From contig CP141137.1 of NCBI GenBank assembly GCA_035236585.1, positions 46,584,057 through 46,648,056 of the forward strand: DNA of 64,000 nucleotides. Reading direction: 5' to 3'. The position numbers and the translations under genes are program-made. Each line of letters starts with the position of its first letter. Positions within the stretch are counted from its first letter, which is position 1. The stretch is from Warburgia ugandensis. Lineage: Eukaryota > Streptophyta > Magnoliopsida > Canellales > Canellaceae. Below, piece by piece: positions 39,801 through 42,800 of the stretch. The notes beneath the pieces were generated by a model. The model was not told the origin of the DNA and made no database searches. It saw nothing but the letters and a program-made list of their open reading frames with translations.

Positions 39801-42800
39801 CATATTGTGGTATGCAAGGAAGCTATTTCAGGCTGATCATTTTTTAGCAGCAAGAAGGAAACATATATGACTAGAAAAAGAAGATTACAAGGAGGGAAGT
39901 GATTGACTTGGAAGCACTAATGAGCTCCAAGTTCTATGGATCTTCTTTGCCCACGATGTGGCAATATGATACATCAAATGAGGCTAAAGAAGGAAGATTT
40001 GGCAAGTATTATACAAGAAGAAGTAAAGACAAAGAATAAACAGAATTTAGTAAATCTGTTACTTCGGTTAGAGGAGGTTACATCTATTAGATATGTCAAA
40101 AAGATAGTTATGGAAGGGGATAAAGGAGGAGGGAAAAGGAGGAGAGAGGGAGGAAAAATGAGAGGAAGAGAATTGGAGGTTCCGGCTCCTCAAAAGCTGG
40201 AGAATGTAACCTAGAATAAGGAAACGCATACAGAACAAAACCAAGAGAGTTCTGCATTTGTTACTGATTGTAATTGTAACTCTGTATCAGAATTCTAGTT
40301 GAAATAGAAATCTATTGGATCATCTATCAGTGGTATTAGAGTTGGTTCAAAACCCGGGAATGGTTAGGACTAGAATGGAGAGGATAGAAAGCATGGAAAA
40401 AGAATTGGAGGGCATGAGAGGGGAGATAGGAGACTTGAGGGAAGACATGGGAAGATTACAAATGAATGTAAATGCATTCGGTGAATATCTTGTAGAAATA
40501 AGAGAATGGATCAAGAATCAAGAATCAAGAAACGTAGGAGGAATGTCGAGATCAGCATAGGAATACGGAAGGGGGAGAACCCTCAGATAGTCATAGACGG
40601 AGTTTCTTCTTGCCAGGGGATCATCACCGTCATGAGTTCCAAGGGAGGAGACTGGATTTGCCGGTGTTCGAGGTCCAAGATCCCTATAGTTGGTTATGTC
40701 AAGCTGAATGATATTTTCAGGTCAACCACATATCCGACAAAGAGAAGATACCAGCAGCGGCCATTTGCATAGAGGGAGATGCTCTCCACTGGTTTTTGTG
40801 GACGGAATCAAGAAATCCTTTCCATTCTTGGGGTTCTTTCTGATCATCCCTGCTATGTCGGTTCCGATCATCTTAGTCCGACGATGATTATGAAGCTTTG
40901 CTTGCTTTGAGGCAGAAGGGTAGTGTTTCAGAGTATCTCTGGTCATTTGAGATGATCGCCGGCCACCTAGGTGACCTCTCCAATGATCTTCTGAAGGAAG
41001 CTTTCCTAAATGGGTTGAGGGAGGACATTAAGGCCGAGATCAAGATCTTCAGGCCTGCTTCTTTATTGGGCCTTAGGGAGTTAGCCCATAAGATCGAGGC
41101 AAAGAACTGGGCTTTGGACCATATACGGGCTTGTCTAGTAAGAAATGAGAGTGGGCCAAGAACGTTGGGGCCCATCCTGAATCATTCGAAGGTAGGATCG
41201 AAGGAATGGGTGTCTCAAGGGCAAAACCGTAATATGCCCATCTTCTTCTGCAACAATGATGGAACCCGAGCAGGATCGACAGTCTGGTGAACAGCTTGCT
41301 GGAAGGAAAGAAAATTTCCAGAAGCTCATTGATGTTGAGCTAAACCAATAGAGATCTCAAGGCCTGTGTTACAAATGTGACGAGAAATACCATCCTGGTC
41401 ACCGACGTAAAAATCGGCAGCTACAAGTGCTGCTACTAGCCGATGAGGAGGAGGAGGAGCTGGAACCCACTCCATGTCCTCCAACGGATCAGGACGACCT
41501 AAGGGAAAGGGATACCCAACCTCTGGAGTTATCCCCAAATTCCATTTCAGGTTTCACGACAGGAGGCACTATGAAACTACAGGGACTGATCGAAAAGAGG
41601 GAGGTGGTAGTCTTGATTGACAGTGGAGCGTCCTACAACTTCATCTCCAACCCACTAGTCAAAAAACTCCATTTGACAGTGGATCGATCACATCAATTCG
41701 GAGTACAAGTGGGGGATGGTCACTGCTTCAAAGGGCAAGGCATCTATTGGCAGATAAAAGTGAATCTGTTAGGTATCACGGTGGTTCAAGAATTTCACCC
41801 GTTTGACCCTGGTGGAACAGACATGGTCCTGAGGGTAGCATGGCTAGAAACCTGGGGCTAGATTTCGGCAAATTTTCGTGATTTGACCATGCATTTCAGA
41901 GTGGATGGGTGTCAGATCATCTTGAAAGGTGTAGAAACAATTAGAAGAGTTTTGGATCCTGGAGGAAGAGTCAAGATGATTACAGGAGATCAATTGGCAA
42001 TTGCTAAGGAAACGGGGCGTCACTTGGGAATGGGTACTAACATAGATCCATCTTCATATTTGTTGGGAGAAAGTAAGGGTGAGGCTGTTCCGGCTCTACC
42101 CAATCAATAAACTAATTGAGAAGGCTGATGATTTTGCTGGAGTCTTTCCTGAACATAAATATGAGATCGTGAAGAAACTACAAGCTAGAAAGCACATCTG
42201 CGGAAGGACTGGTGATGGGGTTAATGATGCATCTGCTTTAAAGAAGGCAGACATAGGAATTGCAATGGCTGATGCCACAGATGCAGCCTGAAGTGGTTCT
42301 GACATAGTTCTAACCGAGCGTGGACTGAGTGCTATCATTACTGAATTCCACCCTGAGGACAAGGTGGCACTGTTAGGCGGGGGTATTGATACATCAAATG
42401 AGGCTAAAGAAGGAAGATTTGGCAAGTATTATACAAGAAGAAGTAAAGACAAAGAATAAACAGAATTTAGTAAATCTTTAACTTCGGTTAGAGGAGGTTA
42501 CATCTGTTAGATATGTCAAAAAGACAGTTATGGAAGGGGATAAAGGAGGAGGGAAAAGGAGGAAGAGAGGGAGGAAAAATGAGAGGAAGAGAATTGGAGG
42601 TTCCAGCTCCTCAAAAGCTGGAGAATGCAACCTAGAATAAGGAAACGCATACAGAACAGAACCAAGAGAGTTCTGCATTTGTTACTGATTGTAATTGTAA
42701 CTCTGTATCAGAATTCTAGTTGAAATAGAAATCTATTGGATCATCTATCACAATATAATACTAATCCTCCACTAGAAGAGTAATATAAGAAACCCTGTGT

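What the first reader, a model, noticed from the sequence alone, without database searches (positions are those of the whole stretch)
39967..42750. Young gypsy-type LTR element that has swapped its polymerase region for a host plasma-membrane H+-ATPase piece
Seen directly: two LTRs of about 363 bp, about 98% identical, a caata target duplication, a tRNA-iMet primer-binding site, gag and protease regions, and then an in-orientation, intron-free stretch of a plant P3A proton pump where reverse transcriptase, RNase H and integrase should be. Known: maize Bs1 is the classic LTR element that captured a plasma-membrane H+-ATPase fragment. Finding the same host gene in another gypsy-type element suggests either repeated capture, perhaps because this mRNA is abundant, or a wider lineage of such elements. 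The low LTR divergence implies a recently active non-autonomous family.
Basis: partly seen in the sequence, partly recalled or inferred. Interest (0 to 1): 0.82.

Follow-up and report, generated by a model that had tools for sequence, protein, structure and literature searches.

The report
Retrotransposon carrying a proton-pump fragment
A short, broken plant jumping gene has lost its copying enzymes and carries in their place a decayed, spliced-looking piece of the plant's own proton-pump gene; this is a real new example of a known phenomenon, like the classic maize element Bs1.

Summary
Window 39967-42750 is a 2,784-bp LTR retroelement: LTRs of 363/364 bp (356 of 364 columns identical), CAATA target duplication, a primer-binding site with 2 mismatches, gypsy-type gag and protease, a purine tract. 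Where RT, RNase H and integrase should be, 41931-42342 aligns in sense, without introns, to 137 consecutive residues of plant H+-ATPase AHA2 (66% and 81% identity in two parts). The frame carries 6 stops and at least 3 shifts, so nothing complete is encoded. New here: the pump piece is changed at 5 of 36 residues identical in plant, fungal and all aligned prokaryotic pumps, and at 10 of 67 in a looser set, against about 0.8 and 1.5 expected from LTR divergence. So capture probably preceded the last transposition, and the composite moved in trans afterwards. Most likely mechanism: two template switches onto a co-packaged pump mRNA. Copy number, donor gene and homology to Bs1 could not be tested; no plant genome is held. 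Capture of host fragments by LTR elements is common, so this is a new member of a known kind; sharing Bs1's host gene is the interesting point.

The parts
39962..39966 (.). target-site duplication CAATA, left copy
39967..40329 (+). 5' LTR, 363 bp, TGATA...TATCA ends
40331..40342 (+). primer-binding site, 10 of 12 to the canonical tRNA-iMet PBS (canonical sequence recalled)
   Evidence: not found with 1 mismatch
40360..41290 (+). degenerate gag (Retrotrans_gag PF03732 in two consecutive open pieces, below cut-off; in-frame stops and frame changes)
41367..41408 (+). zinc-knuckle-like motif (C-x2-C-x4-H-x4-R; last cysteine not present)
   Evidence: read by eye from translation
41589..41849 (+). 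aspartic protease, RVP_2 PF08284, motif LIDSGAS
41862..41930 (+). protease-RT linker of the element; last pol sequence before the capture
   Evidence: translation; assignment recalled from plant gypsy elements
41931..42342 (+). captured plasma-membrane H+-ATPase (P3A) fragment incl. TGDGVND motif, 137 codons with one frame change and one stop
42343..42375 (+). short tail with residues [11 protein letters not shown], resembling the C-terminal end of plant gypsy pol (recalled, no tool hit)
   Evidence: no Pfam hit; pump alignment stops before it
42376..42383 (+). polypurine-tract-like GGCGGGGG before the 3' LTR
42387..42750 (+). 3' LTR, 364 bp
42751..42755 (.). target-site duplication CAATA, right copy

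Best explanation
A non-autonomous, gypsy-type LTR retrotransposon derivative. In an ancestor, reverse transcriptase copying the element RNA switched to a co-packaged, spliced plasma-membrane H+-ATPase mRNA just upstream of the integrase end, copied about 411 bases, and switched back in the protease-RT linker, deleting RT, RNase H and integrase and leaving a sense pump fragment. The composite kept its cis signals (LTRs, PBS, PPT) and was mobilised by a related autonomous element, while gag, protease and pump piece decayed without selection. The copy in the window inserted roughly 0.75-1.4 million years ago (recalled substitution rates). Shown: anatomy, sense and colinear capture, decay, excess drift. 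Inferred: mRNA template, template switching, trans-mobilisation, family.
For: LTRs, TSD, PBS, PPT. Gag and protease families. No RT, RNase H or IN match in the 8 open pieces scanned; protease linker and pump abut, and 44 bp separate the pump from the 3' LTR. Pump aligned over 137 consecutive AHA2 residues with a net +1 base and no insert; plant pump genes have many introns (12-20 in all but one sunflower gene, PMC7231311 passages; mean 17 exons in cotton, PMC11728463 passages). The piece lies between element sequences on both sides, so read-through at one end does not explain it. Drift: 10 of 67 residues conserved in AHA2 and two fungal pumps are changed, 1.5 expected from the LTR clock, P 4e-6, or 1.3e-4 allowing for LTR sampling error. 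Requiring identity in every prokaryotic pump aligned as well: 5 of 36, 0.8 expected, P 0.0014 and 0.0044. Six in-frame stops against 0.8-1.9 expected since insertion, P 2e-4 to 0.014.
Against: The donor gene, its exon map and other copies were not seen. With 12-20 introns spread at random, 411 intron-free bases would occur by chance in 6-18% of cases, so an mRNA template is likely but not proven. Several differences look like C-to-T changes (judged by eye), which methylation can speed up; a transversion-only comparison, sorted by eye, is weaker (4 in the pump against 2 in the LTRs, P 0.012). Of the 10 looser positions, two are not conserved in the prokaryotic pumps (3 of 25 and 0 of 25) and one is 19 of 23. 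PBS has two mismatches. The integrase-end tail is recognised from memory only.
Confidence: 0.82

Rival explanations
1. One-off chimera: the switch happened during the very reverse-transcription cycle that produced this insertion, so there is no family.
For: No second copy in the 64-kb window and none in the viral and prokaryotic contigs scanned; no plant genome was searchable, so this is weak.
Against: The pump piece and the gag/protease frame have decayed more than LTR divergence allows; a one-off capture of a working mRNA should carry about 1-2 replacements at conserved residues, not 10 of 67.
Confidence: 0.12
2. Post-integration DNA event: a retropseudogene or genomic piece of the pump gene entered an already integrated element, for example by end-joining repair or LINE-made retrocopying.
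For: A nearly complete LINE and a second LINE fragment lie nearby, so retrocopying machinery exists in this genome.
Against: No target duplication or poly-A at the pump borders was seen (by eye); the piece stands where pol should be, is in sense, and is internal to the pump coding sequence at both ends.
Confidence: 0.06
3. Shared descent with maize Bs1: one old lineage of pump-bearing LTR elements in flowering plants. (Compatible with the best explanation, so these odds do not sum to 1.)
For: Same host gene family in a pol-less LTR element. Bs1's ATPase piece from review passages (PMC13317346); its size and duplication from recall.
Against: Not testable here. Bs1 also carries two other host gene pieces, not seen here. 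Drift of roughly 7 times the LTR age (0.066 against 0.0098; interval 0.032-0.122) points to a few million years, not the age of a wide flowering-plant lineage.
Confidence: 0.04

Closest known systems
Bs1 of maize (Jin and Bennetzen 1994; Bureau et al. 1994; primary papers not read, seen through passages of PMC13317346, PMC4717578, PMC5408686)
   Same: LTR retroelement with exon-only fragment of the host plasma-membrane H+-ATPase; lack of a complete pol in Bs1 is recalled
   Different: Bs1 carries pieces of three host genes and a hybrid gene that is transcribed and translated; here one host piece and a broken frame. Whether the same part of the pump was taken was not established.
LTR-captured gene fragments in grasses (maize: 425 elements, at least 189 captures, PMC2774510; rice 672, sorghum 1343, PMC3726574; passages read)
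   Same: host gene fragment inside an intact pair of LTRs
   Different: here it stands in place of RT to integrase; host plant unknown. How often captures in those surveys replace pol was not looked up.
Template-switch LTR chimeras in Triticeae (Sabot and Schulman 2007, PMC1950507, abstract and outline seen)
   Different: those fuse two elements; here the second template would be a host mRNA

Membership tests
LTR retrotransposon | two direct LTRs with TG...CA ends and a short target duplication | tested here: met
LTR retrotransposon | primer-binding site after 5' LTR and purine tract before 3' LTR | tested here: met
   10 of 12 to canonical PBS and GGCGGGGG; PBS not found at 1 mismatch
Ty3/gypsy superfamily | gypsy-type gag and retroviral-type protease | tested here: met
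   PF08284 above cut-off; PF03732 and Ty3_capsid below cut-off
Ty3/gypsy superfamily | RT-RNase H-integrase order and RT phylogeny | not testable with these tools
   no match to these domains in the element
Non-autonomous LTR element | lacks genes needed for its own reverse transcription and integration | tested here: met
   no RT, RNase H or IN match in the 8 open pieces scanned; gag/protease frame broken
Bs1-like host-gene transducing element | exon-only fragment of plasma-membrane H+-ATPase between the LTRs | tested here: met
   exon-only nature inferred, donor exon map not seen
Bs1 family proper | sequence homology of LTRs/gag to Bs1 | not testable with these tools
   no Bs1 sequence or plant genome held
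Bs1 family proper | additional glucanase and xylan-hydrolase gene pieces | tested here: not met
   no such Pfam match in the 8 open + strand pieces given; short pieces could be missed

The most novel reading that the evidence does not exclude
H+-ATPase mRNA is a preferred passenger of plant LTR-element particles: unrelated elements (Bs1 in maize, this one elsewhere) have independently taken it up, and the pump-bearing derivative here became a small mobile family that outlived its capture by several million years and could produce small RNAs against the donor pump.
Probability: 0.12. Interest if true: 0.6.

Novelty: new member of a known kind. Interest (0 to 1): 0.34.

Why it matters
A second LTR element holding the same host gene as the textbook case Bs1 makes a simple question testable: are some mRNAs packaged and copied by plant retroelements more often than others? 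The conserved-residue clock used here also shows how to judge, from a single copy, whether a captured gene piece is older than the insertion that carries it.

Tried and rejected
Copies elsewhere: viral-contig scans with the pump piece, protease, gag and an exact LTR pattern gave no relative. Genome contigs with the protease gave none; with the first pump part it gave 25 prokaryotic loci, used only as a conservation control. Rfam at gathering score and ARAGORN found nothing in the window. The P4-type ATPase gene at 1776-4233 was considered as donor and rejected: its N-terminal part is a phospholipid-flippase family (PF16209), and the AHA2 segment does not hit it at E 1e-3. In those listings (titles and abstract beginnings) and in the passages I opened, I saw no other LTR element with a plasma-membrane H+-ATPase piece besides Bs1; unlisted papers and most subscription journals were not seen. 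First drift count was 8 of 58; one position (V/C) was then dropped because plant pumps vary there (recalled) and the third pump piece was added, giving 10 of 67 (11 of 68 without the drop). Five conservation thresholds were tried; with LTR sampling error included, P ran from 1.3e-4 to 0.0044.

Full report
Observation. The window at 39967-42750 holds a complete small LTR element. The LTRs (39967-40329, 42387-42750) agree in 356 of 364 columns, with 5 transitions, 2 transversions and one indel. K2P is 0.0196, about 0.75 million years at 1.3e-8 or 1.4 at 7e-9 substitutions per site and year (rates recalled). CAATA is repeated on both sides. The PBS-like sequence starts after one intervening base and matches the canonical initiator-tRNA site at 10 of 12 positions (canonical form recalled). 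GGCGGGGG precedes the 3' LTR by 3 bases.

Coding remains. Three overlapping frames must be followed. They give a gag (PF03732 in two consecutive open pieces, below cut-off), a degenerate zinc knuckle (by eye), and an aspartic protease (PF08284, E 2e-6, above cut-off). There is no match to RT, RNase H or integrase in the 8 open pieces scanned. The gag-protease-pump path crosses 6 in-frame stops and changes frame at least 3 times (counted, taking the N-terminal open stretch as part of gag), so this copy makes no complete protein.

Capture. From 41931 the translation leaves the protease-RT linker and follows AHA2 (5ksd_A) residues 483-619 without an insert: 37 of 57 and 66 of 81 residues identical in the two frames (E 1.3e-15, 1.9e-36). 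The last 24 residues alone were too short to find the pump. At about 42343 it leaves the pump and reads [12 protein letters not shown] recognise that as the end of plant gypsy pol from memory; no tool confirms it. The pump piece is in sense with the element and internal to the pump coding sequence at both ends. Held papers report 12-20 introns for all but one sunflower gene (PMC7231311, passages) and a mean of 17 exons in cotton (PMC11728463, passages), so 411 bases without an intron suggest an mRNA template, at a chance level of 6-18% if introns fell at random.

Age of the capture. If the pump piece had been taken in the last cycle, it should differ from a working pump only by changes since insertion. 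At 67 residues identical in AHA2 and two fungal pumps (a few N-terminal ones in AHA2 and one fungal pump only), it differs at 10, with 1.5 expected from the LTR clock (P 4e-6; 1.3e-4 with LTR sampling error). As a control I aligned the 25 prokaryotic loci fetched. The 24 with a near-full alignment differ at 5-10 of the 62-67 positions aligned although they are only 57-66% identical overall; the other covered 19 positions and differs at 4. So by count alone the captured piece lies at the upper edge of far more distant working pumps. The sharper test is position by position: restricting to the 36 positions identical in every prokaryotic pump aligned there, the captured piece differs at 5, one of them a stop, with 0.8 expected (P 0.0014; 0.0044 with sampling error). 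The six stops also exceed the 0.8-1.9 expected since insertion. The simplest account is that capture and decay came before the last transposition, so the composite moved while unable to supply its own proteins. Methylation-driven change and an already decayed donor are the main ways this could mislead.

Mechanism. During minus-strand synthesis, RT left the element RNA near the integrase end, copied a pump mRNA, and returned in the protease-RT linker. This explains orientation, lack of introns, clean replacement of pol and retention of PBS, PPT and LTRs. Template switching between unrelated packaged RNAs is a described route for such chimeras (PMC13317346 passages; PMC1950507 abstract). The review passage files Bs1 itself under transduction. 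Only the anatomy is shown; the switch and the helper element are inferred.

Comparison. Bs1 of maize also carries an exon-only H+-ATPase piece (PMC4717578 passage; PMC13317346 passages), with two more host pieces and a hybrid gene that is transcribed and translated. LTR capture of host fragments is common: at least 189 captures in 425 maize elements (PMC2774510 passages), and 672 rice and 1343 sorghum genes (PMC3726574 passages). With so many captures, hitting the same host gene twice needs no special cause, though it invites a test. Membership in the Bs1 family proper could not be tested.

Verdict. The family claim gained indirect support; the Bs1 link is open.

Noticed in passing
window 45360-48424 (+): Near-complete LINE: endonuclease (PF03372, E 1e-6) and RT frame of 633 aa (PF00078, E 1e-35). 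A second, inverted fragment about 79-80% alike lies at 38519-39692, some 275 bp upstream of the LTR element.
   Followed up: partly
window 1776-4233 (-): Host phospholipid-flippase (P4-ATPase) gene exons (PF16209 E 2e-25; PF00122 just below cut-off); a different P-type ATPase subfamily from the captured one.
   Followed up: partly
window 28470-28907 (+): Ferrochelatase exon (PF00762, E 2e-8).
   Followed up: no
window 304, 14146, 15813, 20047, 21960, 23683, 29904, 32470, 33498, 56179, 60090: At least 11 dispersed copies, both strands, of a repeat up to about 185 bp, with pairwise matches 73-88% alike; looks like a MITE or SINE family.
   Followed up: no
window 32470-33673: hAT-like transposase fragment (PF14372, E 2e-13, 32917-33423 minus strand) flanked by two inverted copies (86% alike) of the same dispersed repeat; the repeat may be the ends of a hAT element and its short derivatives.
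   Followed up: no
window 34386-34925 and 35749-36530: Two tandem-repeat arrays with main units of about 84-106 and 127-149 bp.
   Followed up: no
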